A stretch of 42,404 nt of DNA from positions 1 through 42,404 of the forward strand of contig JAFTPE010000035.1 of the NCBI GenBank assembly GCA_017463425.1, written 5' to 3'. Both the position numbers and the translations under genes were made by a program. The stretch comes from Clostridia bacterium. GTDB taxonomy: Bacteria; Bacillota; Clostridia; Christensenellales; Borkfalkiaceae. The notes under the pieces are model-generated. The model was not told the origin of the DNA. It saw only the letters and a list, made by a program, of their open reading frames with translations, and made no database searches. Positions 6,069 to 39,429 of the stretch are shown piece by piece. Each line of letters starts with the position of its first letter. Within the stretch, counting starts at the first letter, position 1.

Positions 6069-8000
6069 ATGGGTTATACGATAGCGCAAAAAATTATTAA
6101 AAATCATCTCGTTTGCGGTGAAATGACGGCGGGGAAAGAAATCGGATTGAAAATCGACCAAACCTTGACGCAGGACGCGACGGGAACGATGGCGTATTTG
6201 CAATTTGAGGCAATGGGTATCGATAGGGTAAAAACCGAACTTTCCGTTGCATATATCGACCACAATACGTTGCAGGCAGGTTTTGAAAATGCAGACGACC
6301 ACCGCTATATTCAAACGGTAGCGAAAAAACACGGTCTTCGCTTTTCCAGACCAGGCAACGGGATTTGTCATCAGGTGCATCTTGAACGGTTTTCGCGTCC
6401 GGGAAAAACCTTGATAGGTTCGGACAGCCACACGCCGACGGCAGGCGGTATCGGTATGCTGGCTATGGGCGCAGGCGGTTTGGACGTAGCGGTGGCTATG
6501 GGCGGCGGCACGTATTACATAGCGATGCCGAAGATGATTAAAGTAAATCTCGTTGGGAAATTATCTAACTACGTAGGCGCGAAAGACGTCATTTTGGAAG
6601 TGTTGCGTATCTTGGGCGTAAAAGGCGGTGTTGGCGCAATCGTTGAATACGGCGGCGAGGGTGTAAAAACGCTTTCCGTACCGCAACGCGCCACCATTAC
6701 CAATATGGGCGCGGAACTTGGCGCGACTACTTCCATTTTCCCCTCCGACGAAACGACGCGCGCATTTTTGAAAGCGGAGGACAGAGAGGAAGATTATATC
6801 GAGCTTTCTTCCGACCCTGACGCAACGTACGACGCGGAATATACCGTTGACCTCAGCGCGTTAAAGCCTTTGGCGGCTTGTCCGCACAGCCCTGACAACG
6901 TGAAGAACGTCAGCGAACTGTCAGGCATGAAAATCAATCAAGTTTGCATTGGTTCTTGCACCAATTCTTCTATGCAAGATATGTTGACGGTAGCGGCTAT
7001 GCTCAAAGGCAAAACCGTTCATCCCGACGTAAGTTTGTCCATTTCCCCTGGTTCAAAACAAGTGTATACAATGTTGGCGGAGTGTGGGGCTTTGGCAGAC
7101 CTTATCAATGCAGGCGCGCGTATTTTGGAATGCGCGTGCGGACCTTGTATTGGTATGGGCTTTTCTCCTCAATCGGCAGGGGTCAGCTTGCGTACGTTCA
7201 ATCGTAATTTCCTTGCGCGCAGCGGAACGGCGGACGCGCAGGTGTACCTCGTTTCTCCCGAAACGGCGGCGGCTTCAGCGGTTGCAGGCGTGTTTACCGA
7301 TCCTACAACTTGGGGCGTTGCGCCTAAGATTGAGATGCCCACACAATTCAAAATCAACGACAATTTGATTGAAATGCCCGTAGGCGTTGATGAAATGGAC
7401 GGCGTAACGGTGGAACGCGGCCCGAATATCAAACCCATTCCCGTAGGCAAAGCGCCTGCTAAGGATTTGGAATGTGAACTCATTTTAAAGGTCGGCGACG
7501 ATATCACCACCGATCATATTATGCCTGCAGGGACGAAAGTATTGCCCTATCGTTCAAACGTGCCGAAACTGTCGGAATTTTGTTTCACGGTATGCGATAA
7601 GGAATTCCCCGAACGCGCGAAAGCAAAAGGCGGCGGCGTTATCTTGGGCGGAGCGAATTACGGGCAGGGTTCTTCGCGTGAACATGCGGCACTTGTGCCT
7701 TTGTATCTCGGTATTAAAGCGGTTGTCGCAAAGAGCTTTGCGCGTATCCACGTGGCAAATTTAATCAACTTCGGTATTGTGCCTATGACGTTGGAAAATC
7801 CCGACGATTACGAAAATTTCAACGAGGGAGATTTGTTGGAAATCAAAGGTTTTGCTAAGGCGGTTGCAAATGCGACGGAGGCGACCCTCGTCAACAAAAC
7901 GAATGGCAAGACGGCGAAACTGAAACTTGCGTTTACGGAAAGACAGCGTGAAATGTTGCTTGCAGGCGGTTGCTTGAACTATACGAAAAATCAAAAATAA
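6069..8000 (+). CDS. acnA: Aconitate hydratase
   Basis: A 643-residue aconitase of the shorter single-chain class found in anaerobes. It interconverts citrate and isocitrate using a [4Fe-4S] cluster. Cluster cysteines are in CIGSCTNSS (about residue 292) and CACGPCIGMG (about residues 354-360). The N-terminal part has SDSHTPTAGGIGMLAMGAGG. The C-terminal swivel domain has GGANYGQGSSREHAA with the substrate-binding SSRE. It lies 30 bases after the citrate synthase and 14 bases before isocitrate dehydrogenase, so all three are co-transcribed. The symbol is used broadly, because this class is distinct from E. coli AcnA. Confidence 0.92.
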   Translation: MGYTIAQKIIKNHLVCGEMTAGKEIGLKIDQTLTQDATGTMAYLQFEAMGIDRVKTELSVAYIDHNTLQAGFENADDHRYIQTVAKKHGLRFSRPGNGICHQVHLERFSRPGKTLIGSDSHTPTAGGIGMLAMGAGGLDVAVAMGGGTYYIAMPKMIKVNLVGKLSNYVGAKDVILEVLRILGVKGGVGAIVEYGGEGVKTLSVPQRATITNMGAELGATTSIFPSDETTRAFLKAEDREEDYIELSSDPDATYDAEYTVDLSALKPLAACPHSPDNVKNVSELSGMKINQVCIGSCTNSSMQDMLTVAAMLKGKTVHPDVSLSISPGSKQVYTMLAECGALADLINAGARILECACGPCIGMGFSPQSAGVSLRTFNRNFLARSGTADAQVYLVSPETAAASAVAGVFTDPTTWGVAPKIEMPTQFKINDNLIEMPVGVDEMDGVTVERGPNIKPIPVGKAPAKDLECELILKVGDDITTDHIMPAGTKVLPYRSNVPKLSEFCFTVCDKEFPERAKAKGGGVILGGANYGQGSSREHAALVPLYLGIKAVVAKSFARIHVANLINFGIVPMTLENPDDYENFNEGDLLEIKGFAKAVANATEATLVNKTNGKTAKLKLAFTERQREMLLAGGCLNYTKNQK

Positions 8001-26322: not shown

Positions 26323-26366
26323 AACTTCTTCTTTGCTATGGATTGTAAAGAAGAAGTTATTTTTTT
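26323..26366 (+). terminator. Intrinsic terminator
   Basis: AACTTCTTCTTT (26323-26334) pairs perfectly with AAAGAAGAAGTT (26347-26358), followed by A and a T-run. Confidence 0.88.
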
Positions 26367-26438: not shown

Positions 26439-26467
26439 TTGTGATTGAAAAAAAAATGTGATATAAT
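26439..26467 (+). promoter_or_regulatory. Promoter of the reductive-branch operon
   Basis: TTGTGA (26439-26444), 17-base spacer, TATAAT (26462-26467). A leader of about 100 bases follows, with a GCGAAT/ATTCGC hairpin at 26484-26500. TTGTGA is also a Rex half-site, but no inverted partner is present, so redox control by Rex is only a guess. Confidence 0.75.
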
Positions 26468-26575: not shown

Positions 26576-27526
26576 ATGAACAACAAAGTTACAATTATCG
26601 GCGCGGGTTCGGTAGGCGCTACGGTGGCGTATACGTTGGTGGCAACAGGCTCGGTTGCAGAAATCGTACTGATTGACGTAAACGAGGCGAAAGCGAAAGG
26701 CGAGGCGTTGGATATCAGACAAGCGACGCCCTATCTTTCCCCTGCGAAAATTTACTTTGGTACGTACGAAGACGCAGTTGGGTCGGATATCGTTATCGTT
26801 ACGTCGGGCGTGGGTAGAAAACCCGGTCAATCGCGTATCGATCTTACGCAAATCAACGTCAACATTTTAAAGAGTATCGCGCCTCAAATCGTGAAATATT
26901 GCCCCGATTCTTTGTATTTGTTCGTGGCAAATCCCGTGGATATTCTTACCTACGTGTTCTGTAAAATTACAGGCGTACCCAAAAATCGCGTTATCGGTAC
27001 GGGTACGACGCTGGATAGTATTCGTCTGCGTACGCGTTTGTCAGAATTGTATTCGGTAAATCAACAACAAGTACATGCGTACGTGTTGGGGGAACACGGT
27101 GATTCGTCTTTCGTTGCTTGGTCTACGGCAGATATTTCTGGCGTACCTTTGGCGGAATACGAAACTACGCTTACGGATAAGAGTACGTTAAAAGTAGAAC
27201 CTTACACGCATGAAGAAGTGGAAGAATACGTGAAAAAATCGGGCGGTCAAATTATTGCAGGAAAGGGCGCGACGTTCTACGGCATTGCGGCTTGCGTAAC
27301 GAAAATCGTCAACTGTATTTATTCCAGCGCGTATACGATTTTGCCCGTGTCTACGGTTTTAGAAGGGGAATACGGCATTTCCGACGTTGCCCTTTCTACG
27401 CTTTGCGCGATTGGTAACGAGGGGATTATCACGACGTTAACGCCTAAACTTTCCGACGAAGAAGTAGAGAAAATGAAACACAGCGCGGAAGTTTTGAAAG
27501 GCGTTATCGCGCAGATTGAAATTTAA
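26576..27526 (+). CDS. Lactate/malate dehydrogenase family; malate dehydrogenase likely
   Basis: 316 residues. The fold and most motifs are those of L-lactate dehydrogenase: [13 protein letters not shown] (NAD loop), [10 protein letters not shown]147/R150 in LDSIRLR, H174 in [13 protein letters not shown]233 in GATFYGIA. The specificity loop reads GRKPGQSR, with R81 where lactate dehydrogenases have Gln102 and malate dehydrogenases have Arg. Changing that Gln to Arg is known to turn Bacillus lactate dehydrogenase into a malate dehydrogenase. Fumarase follows after 29 bases, so I favour NADH-dependent oxaloacetate reduction to malate. Lactate dehydrogenase cannot be excluded because the rest of the pocket is LDH-like. 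Confidence 0.8.
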
Positions 27527-27555: not shown

Positions 27556-28932
27556 ATGGAATACCGTATAGAAAAAGATACGATGGGAGAAATGCAAGTT
27601 CCTGCAGATAGATATTGGGCGGCGCAAACGCAGAGAAGTTATCAAAATTTCCGTATTGGCAACGAAATTATGCCTCGTGAGATTACGCACGCGTTCGGGA
27701 TTTTGAAAAAGGCGGCAGCGCTTGCAAACTGCAAACTCGGCAAACTCTCCGAAGAAAAGAAAAACGCCATTGCGGCGGCTTGCGACGAAGTAATTTCGGG
27801 CGAATTGAACGGTCATTTCCCACTTGTCGTATGGCAAACGGGTAGCGGCACGCAATCGAATATGAATGCAAACGAAGTTATTGCAAACCGTGGAAACGAA
27901 ATTGCAGGCGCAAAATTGTTGCACCCCAACGACGATATTAACAAGAGTCAAAGTTCTAACGATACATTCCCTACGGCAATGCACATTGCGGCGGTGATTG
28001 CGATTGAAGATACGTTGTTTCCCGCTATGGATAAATTGGTGGATACGCTCAAACGTTTGGAGGCGGAAAACGAGGGGATTGTCAAGAGTGGCAGAACGCA
28101 CCTTCAAGACGCTGTTCCTATCGCATTTTCACAGGAAATCAGCGGTTGGAGAAATATGATTGAAAAGACCAAAGCGCAACTTGAACTTGCGTTGCCTGGT
28201 TTGAAAGAATTGGCGCTCGGCGGAACGGCTGTCGGCACGGGCTTGAACGCGCCGAAAGGATTTGCGGAAGAAGTTGCTGCGCAAGTATCCGCGTTGACGG
28301 GCAAAACGTTCGTTACGGCAGAAAACAAATATCACGCGTTGACGGCAAAAGACGAACTCGTGTTTGCGCACGGCGCGTTGAAGGCTCTTGCTTGCAATTT
28401 GATGAAGATTGCAAACGACGTACGTTGGCTTGCGAGCGGTCCTCGCGACGGACTTGGGGAAATTTTCATTCCCGAAAACGAACCTGGCTCTTCGATTATG
28501 CCAGGAAAAGTAAATCCTACGCAATGCGAATCTATGACGATGGTTGCCGTACAGGTTATGGCAAACGACGTTGCGGTTGGTATGGGCGCGTCGCAAGGGA
28601 ATTTTGAATTGAACGTATTTATGCCCGTGATTATTTACAATTTCTTGCAATCGGTACGTTTGCTTGCAGACGGTATTACGTCTTTTGAAAGCAACTGTGT
28701 AACGGGCATCAAGGCAAATAAAGAAAAGATGAAACACAACCTGTACAATTCGTTGATGTTGGTAACGGCGCTCAATCCGTATATCGGATATGAAAATGCG
28801 GCGAAGACAGCAAAGAAAGCGTACAAGGAAAACATCTCGCTCAAAGAAGCGTGTGTGGCGCTTGGATTCCTGTCGGCGGAAAAATTCGACGAAGTATTCC
28901 GTCCTGAGGATATGGCATATCCGCAGAAATAA
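27556..28932 (+). CDS. fumC: Class II fumarate hydratase
   Basis: 458 residues, the usual class II length. [17 protein letters not shown], the region HLQDAVPI (site of the active-site His) and the superfamily signature [16 protein letters not shown] are all present. It interconverts malate and fumarate without an Fe-S cluster. It lies between the malate dehydrogenase candidate and the Hdr-Flx-fumarate reductase genes, so in vivo it probably makes fumarate. Aspartase is less likely because of the neighbours. Confidence 0.95.
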
Positions 28933-28966: not shown

Positions 28967-29746
28967 ATGAAAATCAGTTATTATCCCGGCTGTACGCTTA
29001 GGACGAAAGCCAAAGATTTGGACGTAACCGCCCGTCTTTGTGCCAAGGCTTTGGGCGTAGAAATGGAAGAAATCGAAAATTGGCAATGTTGCGGCGCGGT
29101 GTATAAAATGGGCACGGACGAAATTGCAACCAAACTTTCGGCGGTGCGCGCACTCGATTATGCCAAGCATAACGGCGGAAAACTGCTTACGCTTTGTTCG
29201 GCTTGTCATAACGTAATCAAACGCGCAAACGAGGATATGAAAACCAACGAGGATATTCGTTTTAGGGCAAACAATTATTTAAAACTTGACGAACCGTATC
29301 AAGGAGAAACCGAAGTTTTGCATTATCTTGAAATGTTGAAAAACGTAGTGGGTTTTGACAAAATCAAGAAAATGACGGTAAAGCCTTTGAATAGAAAAAT
29401 TGGCGCGTATTACGGTTGTTTGCTGCTTCGCCCTAGTGGTGTGATGGCGTTTGACAATCCTGAAAATCCTACGATTATCGAGGATTTTATCCGTGCAATC
29501 GGCGGAACGCCCGTCGTATATCCTTTTCGCAATGAATGTTGCGGCGCGTACGTATCACTGAAGAACAGCGATTTACCCAAGAAAAAGAGCGAAAAAGTGT
29601 TGTCGAGCGCAAAGGAAAAGGGCGCGGAAGAAGTGATTACGGCTTGTCCGCTTTGCCTTTACAATTTGCAGGTTAACGGTGGCGGTATCCTGCCCGTCAA
29701 ATACTTTACCGAACTTCTTGCAGAAGCGTTGGGGGTACAAGCATGA
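28967..29746 (+). CDS. hdrB: HdrB-like heterodisulfide reductase subunit
   Basis: 259 residues with two CCG domains. The first has YYPGCTL, WQCCGAV and CSAC. The second has YYGCLL, ECCGAY and CPLC. In methanogen HdrB these cysteines bind two non-cubane [4Fe-4S] clusters that cleave a disulfide. Here the organism is bacterial, so the physiological partner is not CoM-S-S-CoB. The gene overlaps hdrC by ATGA. It begins the electron-transfer section 34 bases after fumC. Confidence 0.9.
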   Translation: MKISYYPGCTLRTKAKDLDVTARLCAKALGVEMEEIENWQCCGAVYKMGTDEIATKLSAVRALDYAKHNGGKLLTLCSACHNVIKRANEDMKTNEDIRFRANNYLKLDEPYQGETEVLHYLEMLKNVVGFDKIKKMTVKPLNRKIGAYYGCLLLRPSGVMAFDNPENPTIIEDFIRAIGGTPVVYPFRNECCGAYVSLKNSDLPKKKSEKVLSSAKEKGAEEVITACPLCLYNLQVNGGGILPVKYFTELLAEALGVQA

Positions 29747-30129
29747 CGAAAGAAGAACGTATTGAAAATTTAAATCGTTTGAGCGGTACGGACGTACGCA
29801 AATGTATGAAATGCGGAAAATGTTCGGGAAGATGCCCTGCATTTAAAGAAATGGACATCAAACCGCATCAGTTTGTAACCATGCTTGGAAAAGGAAAGAT
29901 AGACGAACTGTTGGAAAGCAAGGCTATTTGGAATTGCTTGTCCTGTATGGCTTGCGTCGAACGTTGTCCTCGCGGCGTTGCGCCTGCGGCGGTGATAGAA
30001 GCGGTGCGCGATACGGTTGTTCGTATGCAAGGCAACAACGGCATTAAGGCTGAGGATATTCCGCCTATCGTGGACGAATTGATTCCTCAACAATTATTGG
30101 TAAGCGCGTACAGAAAATATAACAAGTAA
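29743..30129 (+). CDS. hdrC: HdrC-like ferredoxin subunit
   Basis: 128 residues with two [4Fe-4S] motifs: CMKCGKCSGRCP near residue 24 and CLSCMACVERCP near residue 66. It carries electrons between HdrA and HdrB. It overlaps hdrB by four bases (ATGA), which suggests translational coupling and fixed stoichiometry. A 64-base gap separates it from hdrA. Confidence 0.92.
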   Translation: MTKEERIENLNRLSGTDVRKCMKCGKCSGRCPAFKEMDIKPHQFVTMLGKGKIDELLESKAIWNCLSCMACVERCPRGVAPAAVIEAVRDTVVRMQGNNGIKAEDIPPIVDELIPQQLLVSAYRKYNK

Positions 30130-30193
30130 GTTTTTACAAGAGAACTCAGCTCGTATAAAAAATAGAAAAATCTAAAAAAAGAGAGTAAATAAA

Positions 30194-32185
30194 ATGCAAA
30201 GAATAGGTGTTTTTATTTGTTGGTGCGGCAGTAATATCGCGGCAACGGTAGACGTACAGAAAGTGGCAGAAGTTATGAAAAGCGAACCCGGCGTCGTGTA
30301 TTCTGCCGATTATCAGTATATGTGCTCCGAAAACGGTCAACAGCTCATCAAACAGGCAATCAAAGAACATAACCTTACGGGAATTGTAGTTGGTTCGTGC
30401 TCGCCCAGAATGCACGAAGCGACGTTCCGTAAAACGGCGGAAGCGGCAGGTTTAAACCCGTATATGGTTGAAATTGCGAATATCCGCGAACATTGCTCGT
30501 GGATTCATAAAGATATGGACGAGGCGACGGAAAAGGCTATTATTCTCGTTCGTACGGCAATCGCAAAAGTCAAACTCAATGCGCCCCTTATGGCAGGGGA
30601 AAGCCCCGTTGTAAAACGCGCGTTGGTTATCGGCGGCGGGATCGCAGGGATTCAAGCGGCGTTGGATATCGCAGACGCGGGATTTGAAGTGGATATCGTA
30701 GAAAAGAACGCGACGATTGGCGGGAGAATGGCGCAACTTGACAAGACGTTCCCTACGCTTGATTGCTCGGCTTGTATTTTAACGCCGAAAATGGTGGATT
30801 GCGCGCAACACGAAAAGATTGACATTTTGTCGTATTCCGAAGTGGAAGAAGTCAAGGGATTCGTGGGTAATTTCAGCGTAAAAATCCGTCGTAAAGCAAG
30901 ATATGTAGACGAAACCAAATGTACGGGCTGTAAAATTTGTATGGAAAAATGTCCGTCTAAAAAGGGTTTGAACTCGTTTAATATGGATTTGAACACCCGT
31001 CCTGCAATCCATATCCCGTTTGCGCAGGCAATCCCCAACGTTGCCGTGATTGACCCTGAACAATGTATCAAGCTCAAAACAGGCAAATGCGGAATTTGTC
31101 AAAAATTCTGTGGCGCGGGTGCAATTGATTACGAACAGAAAGATACGTTTATCGAACGTGAGTACGGCGCAATCGTGGTTGCGACGGGGTATAAACCTAT
31201 CAATTTGGACGCGTTCAACGAATACGGATATAACGATAACAAGGACGTCATCACGTCTTTGGAATTGGAAAGATTGATGAACGCGGCTGGACCTACGAAC
31301 GGTGTTCTGCTCCGTCCTTCCGACGGAGAACATCCGAAAGTAATCACCTTTATTCAATGCGTAGGTTCGCGTGATTCCAGCGGTTGCGGCAAACCCTATT
31401 GTTCAAAGATTTGCTGTATGTATACGGCAAAACACGCAATGCTTATTCGTGAAAAATATCCTGATACCGAAGTACACGTATTCTATATCGACGTACGTAC
31501 GCCTGGTAAAAATTATGACGAGTTCTACCGTCGCGCGGTGGAGCAATACGGCGTAGATTATATCAAAGGTATGGTGGGCAAAGTATATAACGAAAATGGC
31601 AAGTTGATGGTGCAAGGATCGAATCTTATCGATAACGAACAGATTACGATTGAATCCGATTTGGTCGTTTTGGCTGCGGCAATCGAGCCTGAACCCTCGG
31701 TTAGAAAAGTGGCTACGTTATTGACTGCAAGTATCGACACCAACAATTTCTTGACGGAATCCCACGCAAAACTTCGTCCTGTAGAAAGCCCTACGGCTGG
31801 TGTATACCTTGCAGGCGTGTGCCAAGGTCCGAAAGACATTCCTGAAACGGTGTCGCAGGCGTCGGCGTGCGCGGCGAAAGTAATTGGCTTGCTTGCGAAA
31901 GATAAATTAAAGACAAATCCTTGCGTAGCAATCCCTGACGAGAGTATGTGTAACGGTTGCAGCCAATGCGCCAACGTTTGCGCGTACGGTGCGATTACGT
32001 ACGAAAATAAAGAATTCCGCCTTGGTGGCGGTAAGACGGAAATCCGTCGCGTAGCGTGTGTAAATCCTGCGGTTTGTCAGGGTTGTGGCGCTTGTACGGT
32101 AACCTGTCCTTCGGGCGCTATGGATTTGAAAGGATTCAGCTCTAAGCAGATTATGTCGGAGGTGGAAGCGATATGCAAGAAGTAA
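30194..32185 (+). CDS. hdrA: HdrA-like FAD and Fe-S subunit
   Basis: 663 residues. The N-terminal region has FICWCGSNIAATVDV. The FAD Rossmann motif VIGGGIAGIQAALDIADAG is near residue 142, followed by IGGRMAQLDKTFPTLDCSACILTPKM. Fe-S motifs are CTGCKICMEKCP, CGICQKFCGAGAI, CNGCSQCANVCAYGAI and CQGCGACTVTCPSGAM. HdrA holds the FAD that bifurcates electrons in Hdr complexes, sending one to ferredoxin and one to HdrB. The last 13 bases overlap the next gene. No selenocysteine codon interrupts it. Confidence 0.93.
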   Translation: MQRIGVFICWCGSNIAATVDVQKVAEVMKSEPGVVYSADYQYMCSENGQQLIKQAIKEHNLTGIVVGSCSPRMHEATFRKTAEAAGLNPYMVEIANIREHCSWIHKDMDEATEKAIILVRTAIAKVKLNAPLMAGESPVVKRALVIGGGIAGIQAALDIADAGFEVDIVEKNATIGGRMAQLDKTFPTLDCSACILTPKMVDCAQHEKIDILSYSEVEEVKGFVGNFSVKIRRKARYVDETKCTGCKICMEKCPSKKGLNSFNMDLNTRPAIHIPFAQAIPNVAVIDPEQCIKLKTGKCGICQKFCGAGAIDYEQKDTFIEREYGAIVVATGYKPINLDAFNEYGYNDNKDVITSLELERLMNAAGPTNGVLLRPSDGEHPKVITFIQCVGSRDSSGCGKPYCSKICCMYTAKHAMLIREKYPDTEVHVFYIDVRTPGKNYDEFYRRAVEQYGVDYIKGMVGKVYNENGKLMVQGSNLIDNEQITIESDLVVLAAAIEPEPSVRKVATLLTASIDTNNFLTESHAKLRPVESPTAGVYLAGVCQGPKDIPETVSQASACAAKVIGLLAKDKLKTNPCVAIPDESMCNGCSQCANVCAYGAITYENKEFRLGGGKTEIRRVACVNPAVCQGCGACTVTCPSGAMDLKGFSSKQIMSEVEAICKK

Positions 32186-32628
32186 CCACGGAAAAGAAAG
32201 AATTTACCCCGAATATCGTTGCGTTTTGTTGTAATTGGTGTTCGTATGCCGGCGCAGACCTTGCAGGGTCCAGCCGATTGACCTATCCTGCGAACGTGAA
32301 AATTATTCGCGTGCCTTGTTCTTGCCGCGTAAATCCTATGTTCGTATTGAAGGCGTTTCAACAGGGCGCAGACGGTGTAATCCTTTGCGGTTGTCATCCT
32401 GGGGATTGTCATTACGTTACGGGGAATTATTACACGAGAAGAAGAATGGCGCTGTTGTTCAGTTTCCTTAATTATATGGGCATTGAAAAGGAACGTACGC
32501 GCGTGGAATGGGTTTCGGCGGCAGAGGGCGCTCGTTTCTCTGCGGTTATGAACGATTTTGTGAAAACCGTAACCGAACTTGGCGAAAACAAACGCCTTAC
32601 CGATTTGAGAGTAAAGGAGGGCGAATAA
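32173..32628 (+). CDS. flxD: MvhD/FlxD-like iron-sulfur subunit
   Basis: 151 residues of the methyl-viologen-reducing hydrogenase delta family. Key motifs are VAFCCNWCSYAGADLAG, VPCSCRVNP and CGCHPGDCHY, with cysteines for a [2Fe-2S] cluster. In Flx and Mvh complexes this small subunit links the electron-input module to HdrA. It overlaps hdrA by 13 bases and has GGAGGTGG before its ATG. Confidence 0.9.
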   Translation: MQEVTTEKKEFTPNIVAFCCNWCSYAGADLAGSSRLTYPANVKIIRVPCSCRVNPMFVLKAFQQGADGVILCGCHPGDCHYVTGNYYTRRRMALLFSFLNYMGIEKERTRVEWVSAAEGARFSAVMNDFVKTVTELGENKRLTDLRVKEGE

Positions 32629-32629
32629 G

Positions 32630-33607
32630 ATGAAAGACGTTGAAATGAAGATGAAAGAACGCGCAAAACAACTGCTTGAAAGCGGCGAAGTGGCGCGCGT
32701 GGTCGGTTGGAAGAAAGGGGATTTTTGTTACGATCCCTCTCCTGCAACCTTTGAAACCGTAGAAGAATTGGATAATTTCGTTTACGATTATTTCTGCGGC
32801 GCAAACCTTTCCAAATATCTCATTCAAATCAGCAAAAAAGAAGGTAAAACCGCTGTGTTTTTAAAGCCTTGCGATACCTACAGCTTTAATCAGTTGGTAA
32901 AAGAACACCGTATCAACCGCGAAAACGTATACGTGATCGCCGTTGAATGTATGGCAAAATTCGATATTGAAAAGATTAAGGAAAAAGGCGTTTCGCAAAT
33001 TACGGGCGTGGAAGTGAAAGATAAAGACGTAAAAGTTTCTTCTTTGTATGGAGAAACCACGCTCTATAAACCTGAAATCCTGTTGACGAAATGCGAAACT
33101 TGTCAAAAAACACATCAGGTTAAGGACGAGGAAATCATTCTTCACGAACGTCCTGAAAGAGACGTGGACCGTTTTGCCGAAGTTAAAAAATTGGAGGCAA
33201 TGACGGAAGACGAACGTTTTGCATTTTGGAAAGAACAATTGTCGAAGTGTATCCGTTGTAACGCTTGTAGAAACGTATGCCCTGCATGTTCTTGCGTGAA
33301 ATGCGTATTCGATAATCCTGCGTCGGGCGTTGCTGCAAAGGCAAACGATTCCGAGTTTGAAGAAAAATTATTCCACGTCATTCGCGCGTTCCACGTAGCG
33401 GGACGTTGTACTGATTGCGGCGAATGTTCGCGCGTATGTCCTCAGCATATTCCTTTGCACCTTCTCAACAGAAAGTTTATCAAGGATATAGACGGATTGT
33501 ACGGCGAATTCCAAGCTGGTGAAGAAGCGGAAGGCAAAACACCGTTGACTTCTTATACGGAAGGGGACGCAGAACCCAACGACGTGTTGAACGGGGAGGC
33601 GAAATAA
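32630..33607 (+). CDS. flxC: FlxC-like Fe-S protein with FrhB-like N-terminus
   Basis: 325 residues. The first 200 resemble the FrhB/FdhB-type domain (AVFLKPCDTYSFNQLVKEHRI, VIAVECMAKFD, TKCETC). The C-terminal part has CIRCNACRNVCPACSC and CTDCGECSRVCPQHIP, a two-cluster ferredoxin. It is one base after flxD and overlaps flxB by one base (TAATG). In Desulfovibrio FlxABCD-HdrABC this subunit is part of the NADH-oxidising module. Symbol assigned by order and domain, medium confidence. Confidence 0.8.
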   Translation: MKDVEMKMKERAKQLLESGEVARVVGWKKGDFCYDPSPATFETVEELDNFVYDYFCGANLSKYLIQISKKEGKTAVFLKPCDTYSFNQLVKEHRINRENVYVIAVECMAKFDIEKIKEKGVSQITGVEVKDKDVKVSSLYGETTLYKPEILLTKCETCQKTHQVKDEEIILHERPERDVDRFAEVKKLEAMTEDERFAFWKEQLSKCIRCNACRNVCPACSCVKCVFDNPASGVAAKANDSEFEEKLFHVIRAFHVAGRCTDCGECSRVCPQHIPLHLLNRKFIKDIDGLYGEFQAGEEAEGKTPLTSYTEGDAEPNDVLNGEAK

Positions 33608-34635
33608 TGTTGAAAATTGCGAAAAACAAATTGAATGATTTATATGCAAAAATCAACGAAACAATGGGGCTTTTCATTCCCATTAAAAAAGCGGGTGAAG
33701 TCAATTATCACGTTTGGGGAGAGGGCAAAGAAGTTTCGATTGAAACGTTGAAAACGGTTAAATCGCCTAAAAATATGTTCTTCCCGCAAACGGAAAATAT
33801 GATGAAGTTTAAAACGGAAGGCAAAAACCTTGAAATCATTGACTTGCGCGACGAAAAAAGACCGTTCGTGTTGTTCGGCGTTCGTGCTTGTGATTATAAG
33901 GCAATCGAGGTGCTTGATAAAGTGTTCCTTGCAGACCCTGTGGACAGCTTTTATCAAAGCAGACGCGCAGCGACGACCATCGTAACGCTTGCGTGTTCCC
34001 GTCCCGAAGAGGGTTGTTTTTGCAAGGCGTTCGGCATTGACGCTACTGCGCCGCAAGGCGACGTAACCACTTGGTTGGACGAAGAATATTTGTATTGGCA
34101 AGCCAATACGGAAAAGGGTGAAACCTTAACAAAGCTCGTTCAAGAATTGTTGGAAGAGGGCGGCGAAACGGAAGTAGCTGCGCAAAAAGAGGCTACGGCT
34201 GTTATTATTGACAAATTGCCGTTTTCTAATCTGAATCTTGACAAATTTAAACCCGAAAATTTGAACGAATTGTTTGATTCGCCTAAGTGGGAAGAAATGA
34301 GTGAGGCGTGCTTGGGTTGCGGTACTTGTACGTTCGTATGTCCCACTTGTCAATGTTTCGATATTCGTGATTTTAAGACGAACGAGGGCGTTGTTCGTTA
34401 CCGTTGTTGGGATTCGTGTATGTATTCGGATTTTACGTTGATGGCGCACGGCAACAGCCGTACGACGCAAATGCAGCGTTTCCGTCAAAGATTTATGCAC
34501 AAATTGGTGTACTATCCCTCACAGAACGACGGTTTGTATTCTTGCGTGGGTTGCGGACGTTGTGTGAACAAGTGTCCTCAACATCTCAATATCGTAAAAG
34601 TAGTAAAAGAGTTGGGAGGTAAAGAAAATGATTGA
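33607..34635 (+). CDS. flxB: FlxB-like dicluster Fe-S protein
   Basis: 342 residues, like the beta subunits of sulfhydrogenase and anaerobic sulfite reductase A. The N-terminal part has FGVRACDYKAIEVLDKVF and QSRRAATTIVTLAC. The C-terminal half has CLGCGTCTFVCPTCQCFD and CVGCGRCVNKCPQH, binding two [4Fe-4S] clusters. It overlaps flxA by 8 bases. It is expected to pass electrons from the flavin of FlxA to FlxC and FlxD. Confidence 0.87.
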   Translation: MLKIAKNKLNDLYAKINETMGLFIPIKKAGEVNYHVWGEGKEVSIETLKTVKSPKNMFFPQTENMMKFKTEGKNLEIIDLRDEKRPFVLFGVRACDYKAIEVLDKVFLADPVDSFYQSRRAATTIVTLACSRPEEGCFCKAFGIDATAPQGDVTTWLDEEYLYWQANTEKGETLTKLVQELLEEGGETEVAAQKEATAVIIDKLPFSNLNLDKFKPENLNELFDSPKWEEMSEACLGCGTCTFVCPTCQCFDIRDFKTNEGVVRYRCWDSCMYSDFTLMAHGNSRTTQMQRFRQRFMHKLVYYPSQNDGLYSCVGCGRCVNKCPQHLNIVKVVKELGGKEND

Positions 34636-35455
34636 AGAAACTCTCATTCCTAAAATTGGCGTTGTAACGGATATCCGCAGGGATACGCCCGACGTAAAAA
34701 CGTTCCGAGTTGTAGGTACGGACGGAAAGAAATTATTTCAACATATGCCCGGTCAATGCGCAATGGTGTCCATTCCCGGCGTTGGCGAATGTATGTTTTC
34801 CATAACTTCCTCACCTACAAACGAAGAATATATGGAATTTTCCATTAAAAAATGCGGTTGCGTTACCGAAGTCATTCACGCGTTGGAAGTTGGCGCGCAA
34901 ATCACCGTTCGCGGTCCTTACGGGAAAAATTTCCCCGTGGAAGAAGATTTTAAAGGCAAAGATTTGTTGTTTATTGCAGGTGGTATCGGGCTTGCGCCTT
35001 TGCGTAGCGTCATCAATTACGTGCGTCATTACCGTCAAAATTACGGCAAAGTTGTAATCGTATACGGCGCAAGAAGTAAAGACGACCTTGTAGATATCGA
35101 CGAAATTCAAAACGAATGGGTAAACGAGCCAAATATGGAGGTTTACCTTACCATAGACCGCCCTCAGGAGGGTTGGGACGGACACGTTGGATTCGTACCT
35201 GCCTACGTCAAAGAATTGGGCTTAGACCCGAATATGACGGCGGTACTTTGCGGACCTCCCATTATGATTAAGTTTACGCTTGCGGGATTATTAGAACTTG
35301 GTTTTGACAAATCTCGCGTATACACGACGTTAGAACTTCGTATGAAATGCGGCGTTGGTAAATGCGGCAGATGTAACGTTGGCGATAAATTCGTTTGTAA
35401 AGACGGTCCCGTATTCCGTATGACGGAATTGGACGAACTTCCCGACGAATACTAA
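34628..35455 (+). CDS. flxA: FlxA-like FAD/NAD(H)-binding subunit
   Basis: 275 residues of the ferredoxin-NADP reductase-like family (sulfhydrogenase gamma/AsrB group). The FAD region has FSITSSPTN near residue 60. The NAD loop is FIAGGIGLAPLRSVI, followed by VYGARSKDDL and VLCGPPIMIKF. The C-terminal motif CGVGKCGRCNVGDKFVC binds a [2Fe-2S] cluster. It should oxidise NADH and feed the complex. GGGAGGT lies 6 bases before the ATG, inside flxB. NADPH use cannot be excluded from sequence. Confidence 0.9.
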   Translation: MIEETLIPKIGVVTDIRRDTPDVKTFRVVGTDGKKLFQHMPGQCAMVSIPGVGECMFSITSSPTNEEYMEFSIKKCGCVTEVIHALEVGAQITVRGPYGKNFPVEEDFKGKDLLFIAGGIGLAPLRSVINYVRHYRQNYGKVVIVYGARSKDDLVDIDEIQNEWVNEPNMEVYLTIDRPQEGWDGHVGFVPAYVKELGLDPNMTAVLCGPPIMIKFTLAGLLELGFDKSRVYTTLELRMKCGVGKCGRCNVGDKFVCKDGPVFRMTELDELPDEY

Positions 35456-35467
35456 GGAGAGAAGAAA

Positions 35468-36142
35468 ATGGAAAAAATGGTTAATGTATTTCTTTTCGGT
35501 AAACGTTATGAAGTGCCGGAAAGTTTGACGATTATGAAAGCGATGGAATACGCAGGCTATCAACTGGTAAGAGGTTGCGGTTGCAGAAACGGATTTTGCG
35601 GCGCTTGCGCTACTATTTATCGTATCAAAGGTCAACAAGAATTAAAAACTTGTCTTGCTTGTCAACAGCAGGTAGAAGAGGGTATGTATGTTGCGACATT
35701 GCCGTTCTTCCCCCTTGTAAAACAGGTGTACGACATCAATGAAATCAAACCTACGCAACAGATTATGATGCAGTTGTATCCCGAAATCTACGCGTGTATC
35801 GGTTGTAATGCTTGCACAAAGAGCTGCACGCAAGAACTCAACGTTATGCAATATATCGCTTACGCGCAACGCGGCGAATATGAAAAAGCGGCGGAGGAGA
35901 GCTTTGACTGCGTAATGTGCGGCGTATGTTCTTCCCGTTGTCCCGCTGGCATTTCTCATCCGCAGGTAGCGTTGTTGACCCGTAGACTTACGGGGAAATA
36001 TCTTGCGCCGAAAACCCAACACTTGATTAACAGAGTGGCGGAGATTGACGCTGGCGATTGTAAGGCGGCGTTGGAGGCGATAATGAATACGCCTTTGGAA
36101 GAACAGAAAAATCTGTACAACCACAGAGAAATCGAGAAATAA
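35468..36142 (+). CDS. frdB: Fumarate reductase-type Fe-S subunit (FrdB/TfrB-like)
   Basis: 224 residues. The N-terminal plant-type ferredoxin domain has CGCRNGFCGACATIY and the distal TCLACQ, binding [2Fe-2S]. The C-terminal domain has CIGCNACTKSC and CVMCGVCSSRCP, which look like two [4Fe-4S] sites. The [3Fe-4S] pattern of E. coli FrdB is not apparent. That cluster normally faces the quinone site, so its absence fits a soluble enzyme. It lies 12 bases after flxA and 11 bases before the flavoprotein. It probably bridges the Hdr/Flx clusters to the fumarate site. Confidence 0.83.
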   Translation: MEKMVNVFLFGKRYEVPESLTIMKAMEYAGYQLVRGCGCRNGFCGACATIYRIKGQQELKTCLACQQQVEEGMYVATLPFFPLVKQVYDINEIKPTQQIMMQLYPEIYACIGCNACTKSCTQELNVMQYIAYAQRGEYEKAAEESFDCVMCGVCSSRCPAGISHPQVALLTRRLTGKYLAPKTQHLINRVAEIDAGDCKAALEAIMNTPLEEQKNLYNHREIEK

Positions 36143-36153
36143 GGAGGCAGGAT

Positions 36154-37758
36154 ATGTATAATTATACAGAAGAACAACTTGAATATATGAAAAAAGTGGA
36201 AGCAAGCCGTGCCTCCCGTATTGAAAAATTACACGAACGTATGACGGCGGAAGAAAAAGACGCCGTTTTAGCAGAATTTCACCCCGATTATATCACTACT
36301 GCGTATGAAGAATTGAAAGTAGGGAAAAATAAAGGTGGAAAGGTGTTGCATGAATTGGCAGATTTGTTGCAAGGTCATTCGCGTATTTTGAATATGGATA
36401 TCGACCTTAACAAAATCGATTACGACGTGGACGTTTTGGTAATCGGTGGCGGTGGCGCGGGGTCGTCTGCAGCAATCGAGGCACATGAACGCGGCGCAAA
36501 CGTTATGATTGCAACCAAACTCCGTTTGGGTGATGCTAATACGGCAATGGCGGAAGGCGGTATTCAGGCTGCGGATAAACCCAACGATAGCCCTGCAACC
36601 CATTATTTGGACGCTCTCGGTGGCGGACATTTCAAAAATAAACCCGAACTTTTATACAAGCTCGTAAACGAAGCGCCTGAGGCGATTTTGTGGCTTAACA
36701 ATCTTGGCGTTATGTTTGATAAAGAACCCGATGGTACGATGGTAACGACGCATGGTGGCGGTACTTCTAGAAAGCGTATGCACGCTTGTCGCGACTATTC
36801 GGGTTCGGAAATAATGAGAACGCTCCGCGATGAAGTGTTTAACCGTGGTATTACTGTAGTGGATTTTACGGCTGCAATCGAACTCATTAAAGACACGGAC
36901 GGCAAAATTGCAGGTGCGGTGCTTATGAATATGGAAACGAAAGAAATTTTGATTGCAAGGGCAAAGACGGTTGTTATCGCAACGGGCGGCGCAGGAAGAT
37001 TGCATTATCAAGGTTTCCCCACGTCAAACCATTACGGCGCAACGGCTGACGGACTCGTTTTGGCATACAGAGCAGGCGCAAAATTGCTCTATCCCGAAAC
37101 GTTGCAATACCATCCCACGGGCGCGGCAGAGCCTACGCAAATTTATGGGGCTTTGGTTACGGAAAAAGTGCGTTCGCTTGGTGCGCAGCTCGTTAATAAA
37201 GACGGCGAAGCGTTCGTATATTCGTTGGAAACGCGCGACGTTACCGCATCTTCCATTATTCGCGAATGTAGACAAAGAGGCAACGGTATTAAAACGACGG
37301 ATGGCGAGGGCGTTTGGTTGGATACGCCGCTTATCGATATTTTAAACGGCGAAGGTACGATTGAAAAACGTATTCCCGCAATGCTTCGTATGTTTGGAAA
37401 ATACGGTATTGATATTAGAAAAGAACCGATTTTGATTTATCCGACGTTGCATTATCAAAACGGCGGTATCGATATCGGCGCAAATGGTATGACTTGCGTA
37501 GAAAATCTTTACGTTGCAGGTGAGGCTGTTGGCGGTATTCACGGTACGAACCGTCTGATGGGGAATTCGTTGCTCGATATTATCGTGTTCGGTAGAAACG
37601 CAGGTCAGCAAGCTGGTGAAAAGTATAAGAGCGTAGAATTGAAAGAATTGACCCTCGACCACGTAAAAGATTTTGAAAAGGAATTGGCTGAGGCAGGCAT
37701 TTCTTCAGAAACGGCTTCTCCAAAACTTCTTCCCGATTATAGAAGACAAGCAAATTAA
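36154..37758 (+). CDS. frdA: Fumarate reductase-type flavoprotein (FrdA/TfrA-like)
   Basis: 534 residues. Residues 1-90 are a charged, helical extension absent from classical FrdA. The FAD loop GGGGAGSSAA begins at residue 98. DANTAMAEGG has N129 where SdhA/FrdA have the His that binds FAD covalently, so the flavin is probably non-covalent. Substrate and catalytic motifs are kept: HGGGTSRKRMHACRD, LQYHPTG, LETRDVTAS with the proton-shuttle Arg, and HGTNRLMGNSLLDIIVFG. It reduces fumarate to succinate. L-aspartate oxidase is the main alternative, but the FrdB-like partner and the fumarase upstream argue against it. No membrane-anchor gene follows. Confidence 0.85.
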   Translation: MYNYTEEQLEYMKKVEASRASRIEKLHERMTAEEKDAVLAEFHPDYITTAYEELKVGKNKGGKVLHELADLLQGHSRILNMDIDLNKIDYDVDVLVIGGGGAGSSAAIEAHERGANVMIATKLRLGDANTAMAEGGIQAADKPNDSPATHYLDALGGGHFKNKPELLYKLVNEAPEAILWLNNLGVMFDKEPDGTMVTTHGGGTSRKRMHACRDYSGSEIMRTLRDEVFNRGITVVDFTAAIELIKDTDGKIAGAVLMNMETKEILIARAKTVVIATGGAGRLHYQGFPTSNHYGATADGLVLAYRAGAKLLYPETLQYHPTGAAEPTQIYGALVTEKVRSLGAQLVNKDGEAFVYSLETRDVTASSIIRECRQRGNGIKTTDGEGVWLDTPLIDILNGEGTIEKRIPAMLRMFGKYGIDIRKEPILIYPTLHYQNGGIDIGANGMTCVENLYVAGEAVGGIHGTNRLMGNSLLDIIVFGRNAGQQAGEKYKSVELKELTLDHVKDFEKELAEAGISSETASPKLLPDYRRQAN

Positions 37759-37836: not shown

Positions 37837-39192
37837 ATGGAAAAATCTAACAAAAACAGCAAGAAATGGCTGTGGCTTACCATAGCGCTTGTGGTTGTTG
37901 CGGCTGTTGCTGTCTGGTGCGTTATCAACGCAAATAATGCGAACGGGGTTACGAGTACTTTTAAATTTAGTTCGACGTTCGTTATGTTTACTTTAATGTT
38001 TTTAATTTTGGGGTTGGGCTATTTATTGGGCAGCGTCAACATTAAAGGAGTTTCTCTTGGGACGGCAGGCGTATTCCTCGTTGCGATTTTGTTCGGATGG
38101 TTGTGTACGCTTGATTTTAAAGACGTACCTTTGCTTGGCGCTTTTTATATGGAAAGCACGGCAGCAAAAGTTGTTCAAAACTTAAAAGGTCCTGTACAAA
38201 ATATCGGTTTGATTTTGTTCGTAGGGTCGGTTGGATTTATTGCTGGGCCTAATTTCTTTAAAAATCTTGCGAAGAATTTTAAAACGTATATTTTATTGGG
38301 CGCGGTAATTATTTTATCGGGAACGCTCGTTGCGGTGCTTTGTTCGCTTTTGACAAGCTATGGTCCTGAATATTGGGCAGGTATTTTGTCGGGTGCGCTT
38401 ACTTCCACTCCTGGTTTTTCTGCGGCGCAGGACGCGGCTACGCAAAATTTGCCTTTGATAACCCTTGGACACGCAATTGCGTATCCGTTTGGGGTAGTTG
38501 GCGTTGTTTTGTTTGTGCAGTTGCTCCCTAAATTTTTAAAAGCGGATATGGCGAAAGAAAGGGAGCTTTTAAAACTTGGCGGAACGGAAGAATCGAGGGA
38601 TTATTCCAAATACTTTAAATGCGAAGATTTTGGGTTTATGCCGTTTGCGCTTGCGATTATTGCAGGTTTATTATTGGGTTCGATCAATATCCCCTTGACG
38701 GGCGCAGGTTACTCAGGACCTTGTTTCTCGCTTGGTACGACGGGCGGTGTATTGATTATGTGCTTGGTGTTCGGGCATTTTGGACATTTTGGGAAATTGT
38801 CGTTGGAAGTTGCGTCTGGGACGTTGAAAGTGCTTAGAGAATTTGGTTTGGCATTGTTCTTAATCGGCGCAGGTTTTGAAGGCGGCGTGGCTTTGGTTGA
38901 AGAAATTTCCAAAGCAGGAGGTGCAGGAATCGTCGTATGGGGATTCTTTGGTGGCGCAGTGATGACCGTTGTTCCTATGATTGTAGGGCTTGTCATTGGT
39001 AAATACGTATTAAAATTGCCTTTGTTGAACAATTTGGGTTCGATTACGGGTGGTATGACTAGTACGCCAGCGCTTGGCACGTTGATTTCTACGGCAGAAA
39101 CGGATGACGTTGCATCTGCGTATGCGTCCACGTATCCGATAGCATTGATTTTAATCGTATTGGCGTCGCAGCTGATGATTACTTTGATGTAA
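37837..39192 (+). CDS. AspT/YidE-family transporter, candidate succinate exporter
   Basis: 451 residues with about ten to twelve membrane segments in two related halves. Each half carries the family repeat signature: GALTSTPGFSAAQDA near residue 190 and GGMTSTPALGTL near residue 409. The RCK/TrkA-C domains usual between the halves are missing; only a short charged loop (KADMAKERELLKLGG) is there. The AspT family includes aspartate:alanine exchangers and SucE1, a succinate exporter of Corynebacterium. Position at the end of an operon making succinate points to succinate or dicarboxylate export, by inference. Confidence 0.82.
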   Translation: MEKSNKNSKKWLWLTIALVVVAAVAVWCVINANNANGVTSTFKFSSTFVMFTLMFLILGLGYLLGSVNIKGVSLGTAGVFLVAILFGWLCTLDFKDVPLLGAFYMESTAAKVVQNLKGPVQNIGLILFVGSVGFIAGPNFFKNLAKNFKTYILLGAVIILSGTLVAVLCSLLTSYGPEYWAGILSGALTSTPGFSAAQDAATQNLPLITLGHAIAYPFGVVGVVLFVQLLPKFLKADMAKERELLKLGGTEESRDYSKYFKCEDFGFMPFALAIIAGLLLGSINIPLTGAGYSGPCFSLGTTGGVLIMCLVFGHFGHFGKLSLEVASGTLKVLREFGLALFLIGAGFEGGVALVEEISKAGGAGIVVWGFFGGAVMTVVPMIVGLVIGKYVLKLPLLNNLGSITGGMTSTPALGTLISTAETDDVASAYASTYPIALILIVLASQLMITLM

Positions 39193-39402: not shown

Positions 39403-39429
39403 AAAAACCCTGTATAAAACAGGGTTTTT
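39403..39429 (+). terminator. Intrinsic terminator of tRNA-Ser
   Basis: AAAAACCCTG (39403-39412), loop TATAAAA, CAGGGTTTTT (39420-39429). Confidence 0.88.

What the first reader, a model, noticed from the sequence alone, without database searches (positions are those of the whole stretch)
28967..37758. Candidate soluble, electron-bifurcating fumarate reductase: HdrBCA, FlxDCBA and FrdBA in one operon
Seen: nine consecutive genes with overlaps or gaps of 64 bases or less encode HdrB, HdrC, HdrA, FlxD, FlxC, FlxB, FlxA, then a [2Fe-2S]/2x[4Fe-4S] FrdB-like protein and a FrdA-like flavoprotein. There is no membrane anchor. Known: FlxABCD-HdrABC oxidises NADH in anaerobic bacteria and HdrA-type flavins bifurcate electrons; methanogen Tfr couples thiols to fumarate. 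Inference: all nine proteins form one cytosolic complex that uses 2 NADH to reduce fumarate and, at the same time, ferredoxin. With NADH near -320 mV, fumarate near +33 mV and ferredoxin near -450 mV this is energetically allowed. It would save energy from fumarate reduction without a membrane enzyme.
Basis: partly seen in the sequence, partly recalled or inferred. Interest (0 to 1): 0.9.

Follow-up and report, generated by a model that had tools for sequence, protein, structure and literature searches.

The report
Predicted electron-splitting fumarate reductase operon
A bacterium of the Clostridia type carries a gene set that probably uses NADH to turn fumarate into succinate in the cytosol while also making the strong reductant ferredoxin; the idea is already in print for one relative, is unproved at the bench as far as I could find, and the gene set turns out to be common and tightly kept together in this class of bacteria.

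Summary
In detail: nine ORFs as described, inside a probable 12-gene unit with malate dehydrogenase, fumarase and an Asp-Al_Ex transporter.

It is not unique. FrdA orthologs occur in 54 of 391 genomes of the class. Of 54 neighbourhoods fetched from 53 of these genomes, 41 show all nine genes in order, 12 are cut by contig ends, 1 is rearranged; 33 of the 41 also have a fumarase nearby. Sdh_cyt anchors: 0 of 54 genomes. FrdA keeps fumarate-site residues but has a new N-terminal part and no C-terminal domain.

Outside the class the nine-gene linkage is the exception: FrdBA also sits with HdrCB only, with membrane redox proteins, or without Hdr genes. Yet HdrB splits into Frd-associated and stand-alone lines even where FrdBA is unlinked.

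The bifurcation idea was published for Pseudoclostridium thermosuccinogenes (PMC7282089); I found no enzymatic proof. Best reading: a new member of a predicted kind. In this 82%-complete genome, where RnfC was not found, ferredoxin probably feeds a B1 [FeFe]-hydrogenase.

The parts
26323..26358 (+). terminator-like hairpin before the unit
   Evidence: consensus scan, 14 pairs plus T run; not proof of function
26439..26467 (+). promoter-like site, extended -10, before the MDH gene
   Evidence: TTGTGA-17-TATAAT, 10 of 12; consensus match only, 30 found in the region against 22.1 in shuffles
26576..27526 (+). malate dehydrogenase (LDH/MDH family, Arg at the substrate-specificity position)
   Evidence: Pfam Ldh_1_N/C; Arg in 31 of 31 aligned sequences; the Arg=malate, Gln=lactate rule is recalled
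27556..28932 (+). class II fumarase FumC
   Evidence: TIGR00979 732.5 bits, cut-off 664.75
28967..29746 (+). HdrB: two CCG domains with ten cluster cysteines
   Evidence: ten Cys in 43 of 43 aligned sequences
29743..30129 (+). HdrC: two [4Fe-4S] ferredoxin motifs
   Evidence: eight Cys in 43 of 43
30194..32185 (+). HdrA: flavin subunit of the bifurcating HdrA kind
   Evidence: best PDB chain by sequence 5odc_A, E 3.3e-207; Cys of the cluster motifs in 42 of 42
32173..32628 (+). FlxD (MvhD/FlpD-like)
   Evidence: PF02662 188 bits
32630..33607 (+). FlxC iron-sulfur subunit
   Evidence: Fer4-type matches, position and conservation; named from context
33607..34635 (+). FlxB iron-sulfur subunit (sulfhydrogenase-beta-like)
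   Evidence: PF17179 and NF040829, the latter under its cut-off
34628..35455 (+). FlxA: FAD- and NAD-binding input subunit with [2Fe-2S] site
   Evidence: PF00970, PF00175, PF10418
35468..36142 (+). FrdB-like protein: [2Fe-2S] plus two [4Fe-4S] motifs, no CCG domain
   Evidence: 12 motif Cys in 53 of 53
36154..37758 (+). FrdA-like flavoprotein with about 88-residue N-terminal extension, no C-terminal domain, non-covalent FAD predicted
37837..39192 (+). Asp-Al_Ex family permease, candidate succinate exporter
   Evidence: PF06826 207 bits; substrate inferred from context
39403..39429 (+). terminator-like hairpin after the unit
   Evidence: consensus match only

Best explanation
The cluster encodes a cytosolic NADH:fumarate reductase built from a Flx-Hdr electron-bifurcating core and a soluble FrdBA module. 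NADH reduces FlxA; electrons pass through FlxB, FlxC and FlxD to the HdrA flavin, which splits them. The low-potential electrons leave through HdrA's ferredoxin domains to ferredoxin. The high-potential electrons go HdrC, HdrB, FrdB, FrdA to fumarate. HdrB and HdrC act as the adaptor to FrdB, so that FrdB plus HdrB stand in for what one polypeptide, TfrB, does in methanogens. MDH and fumarase supply fumarate and the transporter may export succinate. In this genome, where no RnfC was found, the reduced ferredoxin is probably reoxidised by the monomeric B1 [FeFe]-hydrogenase, so fumarate reduction would pull H2 out of NADH. Shown: genes, order, conservation, residue conservation, co-occurrence, lack of the Sdh_cyt anchor. 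Inferred: physical complex, electron path, bifurcation, fate of ferredoxin.
For: Order conserved. Fumarase genes near 33 of 41 complete class operons: class II in 20, class I in 13, never both. Frd-associated HdrB lies outside the stand-alone group (100/98 support), 2 label changes on 60 rows, also in 4 genomes whose FrdBA is on another contig. hdrC-hdrB-frdBA without hdrA or flx beside it exists (L223, L225), pointing to HdrBC as the link to FrdB. FrdB matches part of TfrB's N-terminal half and HdrB part of its CCG end. HdrA aligns end to end with the solved HdrA 5odc. Fumarate-site residues H320, T336, E337, R361, H433, R467 invariant in 34 of 34 and aligned to E. coli FrdA. Sdh_cyt 0 of 54. 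Reaction favourable: -33 to -49 kJ/mol for ferredoxin at -500 to -420 mV. In P. thermosuccinogenes the set rises about 4-fold under CO2 limitation, not significant for every subunit, and H2 nearly abolished succinate in an older study, which its authors read as fitting ferredoxin-linked fumarate reduction (PMC7282089, passages).
Against: No biochemical data. Outside the class 5 of 30 FrdA-family loci have HdrBCA and at least FlxDCB beside FrdBA; 12 of 30 show no Hdr gene in the stretch fetched, though 3 of those start at a contig end within 2.5 kb of FrdB. G456, G459 and G677 have FrdA but no HdrA at E 1e-130, so FrdBA can have another donor. On the FrdA tree gene contexts are mixed (11 changes for 9 labels), i.e. 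partners were exchanged. HdrB keeps both sets of five cluster cysteines (43 of 43), which would also suit disulfide reduction. RnfC is rarer in operon carriers (26 of 54) than in others (257 of 337) by my count, so ion pumping from the ferredoxin is not general. No fusion of FrdB with an Hdr or Flx protein in 52 complete FrdB ORFs. In the same P. thermosuccinogenes paper, lower redox potential by Na2S is said to have had the opposite effect to H2.
Confidence: 0.66

Rival explanations
1. The same complex carries NADH electrons to fumarate without splitting them: Flx-Hdr is only a wire and no ferredoxin is reduced.
For: NADH plus fumarate alone is strongly downhill (-68 kJ/mol). Carriers often lack RnfC. 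PMC12773636 (passages read) assumes a plain NADH-dependent fumarate reductase in Blautia luti.
Against: HdrA keeps the cysteines of its cluster motifs including the two C-terminal ferredoxin clusters (42 of 42) and aligns end to end with the HdrA of known structure; a wire would not need the ferredoxin side.
Confidence: 0.17
2. HdrB reduces a disulfide and the resulting thiols, not a protein contact, carry electrons to fumarate reductase, as in methanogen thiol:fumarate reductase.
For: HdrB keeps both noncubane-cluster motifs (43 of 43). FrdA's best NCBIfam match is TfrA (352 bits).
Against: FrdB here has no CCG domain to oxidise thiols; FrdA scores far under the TfrA cut-off (352 against 718). 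Frd-associated HdrB differs from stand-alone HdrB at 11 positions, 7 of them within five residues of a cluster cysteine (weak).
Confidence: 0.08
3. FrdBA and Flx-Hdr are separate enzymes that are merely co-transcribed for succinate fermentation; FrdBA takes electrons from another carrier.
For: FrdBA without adjacent Hdr genes exists outside the class, with no HdrA found in 3 of 29 genomes and with membrane redox proteins in 2 loci.
Against: Linkage in the class wherever contigs allow it to be seen; Frd-associated HdrB line in genomes where the genes are unlinked; hdrCB-frdBA gene sets.
Confidence: 0.07
4. The complex runs backwards: succinate plus reduced ferredoxin plus NAD+ give fumarate and NADH (confurcation).
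For: Bifurcating enzymes are reversible (recalled). One relative has SucCD-like ORFs beside FrdBA (L221, named by eye).
Against: Context here is the reductive branch with a candidate exporter; the back reaction costs 33-49 kJ/mol under standard conditions; P. thermosuccinogenes, which has the gene set, makes succinate (PMC7282089).
Confidence: 0.02

Closest known systems
Pseudoclostridium thermosuccinogenes 'succinate operon' (PMC7282089; passages read)
   Same: fumarase (tag 03365), Flx-Hdr (03360-30, seven tags if numbered in fives), fumarate reductase (03325-20) and a hypothetical possible transporter (03315): same count and order as FumC, 7 genes, 2 genes, transporter here. Same bifurcation proposal.
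   Different: Sequences not compared (not held here). The window also has MDH directly upstream and lies in an unnamed, incomplete genome.
rTCA clusters of tubeworm symbionts and Thioflavicoccus (PMC6315080; passages read)
   Same: flxABCD-hdrABC interspersed with tfrAB; a shared complex is suggested there.
   Different: Carbon fixation context, korABCD included, Gammaproteobacteria.
FlxABCD-HdrABC of Desulfovibrio (Ramos 2015, seen only as a reference)
   Same: Same seven subunit families.
   Different: FrdBA is not part of that system (recalled). Stand-alone Flx-Hdr clusters of the window's phylum have HdrC before HdrB in 15 of 15 that show both, and mostly an HdrB of another line; Desulfovibrio itself was not compared.
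Methanogen thiol:fumarate reductase TfrAB
   Same: FrdA's best NCBIfam hit is TfrA; FrdB and HdrB each match part of TfrB.
   Different: Split proteins, under curated cut-offs, extra N-terminal part and no C-terminal domain on FrdA, NADH input module.
8-methylmenaquinol:fumarate reductase (MFR, SdhE anchor subunit)
   Same: CCG subunit serving a FrdB (recalled); HdrB scores 135 bits to MFR SdhE against 139 to CoB-CoM HdrB.
   Different: No Sdh_cyt in 54 of 54 carriers and, in 49 of 54, no UbiA match over cut-off.

Membership tests
Flx-Hdr-linked fumarate reductase (predicted kind, PMC7282089) | fumarase, Flx-Hdr and FrdBA in one operon-like cluster | tested here: met
Flx-Hdr-linked fumarate reductase (predicted kind, PMC7282089) | NADH + fumarate dependent ferredoxin reduction | not testable with these tools
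   needs biochemistry; no report seen in the listings of searches
FlxABCD-HdrABC | all seven subunits in one cluster | tested here: met
FlxABCD-HdrABC | cluster-motif cysteines of HdrA, HdrB, HdrC kept | tested here: met
   42 of 42, 43 of 43, 43 of 43. Besides, the window lacks one Cys that is common in relatives in HdrA (at or next to residue 67), FlxD (147) and FrdB (141); roles unknown
Methanogen TfrAB | TfrA equivalog score over NCBI cut-off (718) | tested here: not met
   352 bits
Methanogen TfrAB | TfrB with FrdB-like and CCG parts in one chain | tested here: not met
   FrdB 224 aa without CCG; CCG on HdrB
Membrane quinol:fumarate reductase (complex II) | cytochrome b anchor (Sdh_cyt) in genome | tested here: not met
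   0 of 54 genomes; control 7 of 14. E. coli type FrdC/FrdD families not tested
Membrane quinol:fumarate reductase (complex II) | quinone synthesis (UbiA-type prenyltransferase) | tested here: not met
   own genome none; of 54 carriers 8 match at E 0.001 and 5 pass the cut-off
Membrane quinol:fumarate reductase (complex II) | covalent FAD histidine | tested here: not met
   Asn129, invariant in 34 of 34; role of that His recalled
Fumarate reductase activity (FrdA superfamily) | substrate and proton-transfer residues | tested here: met
   H320, T336, E337, R361, H433, R467; roles recalled
Electron-bifurcating HdrA | full-length match to HdrA of solved complexes, cluster motifs kept | tested here: met
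   (5odc_A; Lys413 at its Lys409, importance recalled)
Electron-bifurcating HdrA | bifurcation measured | not testable with these tools
   none

The most novel reading that the evidence does not exclude
HdrBC is a general electron adaptor that turned a heterodisulfide reductase into a fumarate reductase: the HdrB in FrdBA genomes is a distinct line whose noncubane clusters pass electrons straight to FrdB, FrdA's new N-terminal part replaces the lost helical domain as docking surface, and in Clostridia carriers without RnfC (28 of 54 by my count) the ferredoxin arm feeds a hydrogenase, so that fumarate reduction drives H2 release from NADH (-50 kJ/mol under standard conditions).
Probability: 0.45. 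Interest if true: 0.75.

Novelty: new member of a known kind. Interest (0 to 1): 0.55.

Why it matters
Succinate and H2 are major gut fermentation products (recalled). If this enzyme bifurcates, Clostridia without a membrane fumarate reductase gain energy or dispose of NADH through fumarate in the cytosol, and ATP and H2 budgets change. PMC12773636 (passages) computes such a budget for Blautia luti with a plain NADH-dependent fumarate reductase; a Blautia glucerasea contig carries the nine genes (L155), but B. luti itself was not checked. The module is common (54 of 391 class genomes), so one purified example would bear on many organisms.

Tried and rejected
FrdB structure: low confidence (pLDDT 57), not used. 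FrdA model: usable (pLDDT 83), best match E. coli FrdA (TM 0.67 by query length); the origin of its N-terminal part remains unknown. Second aligner not available. Rex-box search in the window: 4 hits with up to 2 mismatches, 4.37 expected, rejected. Gene fusions as evidence of contact: none in 52 complete FrdB ORFs. L-aspartate oxidase: FrdA scores higher to TfrA than to NadB (352 against 275 bits) and has FrdB/Hdr partners, so rejected; the second-tier matches (39% or lower) were not typed. Selenocysteine in HdrA of L082: suggested by a '1 TGA' flag, but the stop sits at the end of the alignment, rejected for that locus. The 2019 preprint could not be read. Typing of the large HdrA-like protein in L212-type clusters gave only generic FAD and ferredoxin domains.

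Limits of counts: per-genome RnfC calls for the 54 carriers were made by me from best_E (threshold about 1e-73, my conversion of the 245.95-bit cut-off) because one search lists only part of the matches; genomes are related, so the Fisher value 5.5e-5 overstates independence. PF00374 matches cover only about 70 of 508 positions. Alignment A1 holds the window and 33 of the 53 FrdA references; A2 the window and 27 FrdB. One search dropped rows with stops or under 80% length. Trees used 24 of the 54 class loci plus the window, and 17 loci without FrdA chosen by me (16 from the 71 HdrA-positive, FrdA-negative genomes, one from the class); 15 gave an HdrB row, 16 an HdrA row. HdrA and FrdA trees were 'quick'; the HdrB tree has very long branches (L260, L261), and one second HdrB copy of a FrdA genome (L233) falls with the stand-alone group. 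The HdrB comparison leaves out L260, L261 and that copy. In the class, five HdrA pieces on contigs other than the FrdA contig (G099, G126, G177, G255, G361) were not fetched. Literature searches showed at most 20 rows each.


Full report
Observation. Profiles and position name them HdrB, HdrC, HdrA, FlxD, FlxC, FlxB, FlxA, a [2Fe-2S]/2x[4Fe-4S] FrdB-like protein and a FrdA-like flavoprotein. None of the nine reaches an NCBIfam curated cut-off in the rows listed. The unit is larger than reported: an MDH-type dehydrogenase (Arg at the specificity position in 31 of 31) and class II fumarase lie directly upstream, an Asp-Al_Ex permease directly downstream, and promoter- and terminator-like sites frame the set. 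It reads as oxaloacetate to malate to fumarate to succinate, with a candidate exporter.

Conservation in the class. In 391 genomes, 54 hold a FrdA ortholog (63-100% identity); the next best matches are 39% or lower and were not typed. I fetched 54 neighbourhoods from 53 of these genomes: 41 have all nine genes in the same order, 12 are cut by contig ends, 1 (L082) has frdBA before hdrBCA-flxDCBA (its flxBA). Of the 41, MDH is seen in 30, the permease in 25 and a fumarase in 33: class II in 20, class I in 13, both in none, neither in 8 (family names checked). Of the best 80 named GTDB loci, 57 have all nine and 23 are cut. HdrA is found at E 1e-100 in 57 of the 391. Where I looked, HdrA of this type lay in this operon or in a contig-cut piece of it (G032, G007, G274 among the pieces); five further pieces (G099, G126, G177, G255, G361) were not fetched. 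G022, G037 and G065 have more distant HdrA (44-47%), in other gene sets in the two looked at (G022, G037). The module is patchy: 5 other sampled members of the window's own family lack FrdA. Pairwise distances of FrdA follow those of HdrA (r 0.89), HdrB (0.82), FlxB (0.86) and, less, MDH (0.72).

The FrdA is unusual. It has about 88 extra N-terminal residues, modelled with block pLDDT 79-96, and ends before the C-terminal domain of TfrA and SdhA/FrdA. Asn129 stands at the covalent FAD histidine of E. coli FrdA and is invariant, so FAD should be non-covalent. The fumarate-site residues are invariant in 34 of 34. The best fold match is E. coli FrdA.

Soluble setting. Sdh_cyt is found in 0 of 54 carriers, with 7 of 14 controls positive. 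UbiA passes its cut-off in 5 of 54 and has no match in the own genome. [FeFe]-hydrogenase is found in 52 of 54. By my reading, RnfC is over its cut-off in 26 of 54 carriers against 257 of 337 other genomes, and not in the own genome, which is only 82% complete. Of the 28 without RnfC, 4 have a short NiFe-hydrogenase match. The own hydrogenase is a B1 monomeric type over its cut-off (594 against 450); group B enzymes are linked to ferredoxin in PMC12578642 and PMC12773636 (passages read).

Beyond the class. In 299 genomes of the phylum, 29 more carry the FrdA family (52-64%), plus two distant ones (40-41%) that I set aside. Their 30 loci fall into: frdBA-hdrBCA-flxDCB(A) (4), hdrCBA-flxDCBA-frdBA (1), hdrCBA with a large HdrA-like protein and flxD before frdBA (8, L227 cut), hdrC-hdrB-frdBA only (2), frdBA behind an HdrC-like protein and a membrane FMN/iron-sulfur protein (L221) or with NapC-like cytochrome and a membrane FMN protein (L232), no Hdr gene in the stretch fetched (12; L213, L220 and L237 start at a contig end within 2.5 kb of FrdB, and L222 shows no FrdB), contig-cut (1). 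So 'is frdBA always linked?' gets yes in the class, as far as contigs show, and no in the phylum. HdrA at E 1e-130 is found in 26 of 29 of these genomes against 71 of 269 without FrdA; some of those 26 have HdrA away from FrdBA and perhaps of the stand-alone kind. In four genomes with unlinked FrdBA (G619, G400, G571, G595) an hdrBCA-flxDCBA set (in G571 cut by the contig end after flxB) sits on another contig, in the HdrB-HdrC order and with HdrB closer to the window's (48-52%) than in stand-alone clusters (29-38%, L261 23%), which have HdrC before HdrB in 15 of 15 that show both. On the HdrB tree 13 of 15 stand-alone rows, plus a second HdrB copy of one FrdA genome, form a group at 100/98; the Frd-associated rows lie outside it and the FrdA label needs 2 changes on 60 rows. 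On the HdrA tree it needs 1 on 58. This is the strongest new evidence for coupling, since it does not depend on gene adjacency. Against it stands the FrdA tree, where contexts are mixed (11 changes for 9 labels): FrdBA has changed partners.

Mechanism. The most economical path is NADH, FlxA, FlxB/C, FlxD, HdrA flavin, then ferredoxin on one side and HdrC, HdrB, FrdB, FrdA, fumarate on the other. FrdB matches residues 19-99 of TfrB and HdrB residues 377-471, and hdrCB-frdBA sets exist without adjacent hdrA or flx: HdrBC is the likely adaptor. Positions that separate Frd-associated from stand-alone HdrB lie near the cluster cysteines more often than expected (7 of 11, p 0.016), a weak hint since those parts are also the conserved ones. 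The overall reaction is favourable. Complex formation, path and bifurcation are inferred.

Literature. PMC7282089 (passages read) describes the same layout in P. thermosuccinogenes, reports about 4-fold induction under CO2 limitation (not significant for all subunits), and assumes ferredoxin-linked fumarate reduction, citing a 2019 preprint that I could not read. PMC6315080 (passages) suggests a flx-hdr/tfr/kor complex in rTCA clusters. PMC12773636 (passages) reports high frdAB transcription and viologen-dependent fumarate reductase in Blautia luti; the terms hdr, flx and heterodisulfide do not occur in its main text. The listings of searches showed me no report of a purified bifurcating fumarate reductase; subscription papers and preprints are mostly not held.

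Verdict. A real, highly conserved, already proposed but unproved enzyme system; this is a new member, with new comparative evidence on how the parts connect.

Noticed in passing
L248, L249, L250, L251, L253, L259: HdrA of stand-alone Flx-Hdr clusters has an in-frame stop (TGA) at the position of window HdrA Cys194, probably selenocysteine; the Frd-linked class HdrA have Cys there (42 of 42).
   Followed up: partly
window 4647-6038 and 6069-8000: HMGL-like synthase and aconitase upstream in the window, perhaps the oxidative arm of a split TCA cycle that would pair with the reductive operon.
   Followed up: no
L066 (G173:C34:71787-73771): HdrA is split into two overlapping frames, a frameshift or assembly error.
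   Followed up: no
L034, L038, L039, L047, L065: A gene for the redox-sensing repressor Rex lies within four genes of the operon in 5 of 54 class loci (the L047 protein named by profile); no Rex-box excess in the window.
   Followed up: partly
class loci L031-L084: Class II and class I fumarase replace each other beside the operon: of 41 complete loci 20 have FumC, 13 a class I fumarase, none both, 8 neither in the stretch fetched.
   Followed up: yes
L198 (G269): In the rearranged operon a protein distantly like aldehyde:ferredoxin oxidoreductase (113 bits, cut-off 868) follows flxA.
   Followed up: partly
L123, L147, L156: Contigs labelled Treponema, Bacteroidaceae and Spirochaetales carry the operon (L156 a contig-cut part) at 71-75% FrdA identity: transfer or wrong binning.
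   Followed up: no
L196 (G022): A different HdrA set: glycolate-oxidase/LDH-like FAD protein, CCG proteins, HdrA, FlxD and an [FeFe]-hydrogenase-like protein together (names by eye).
   Followed up: no
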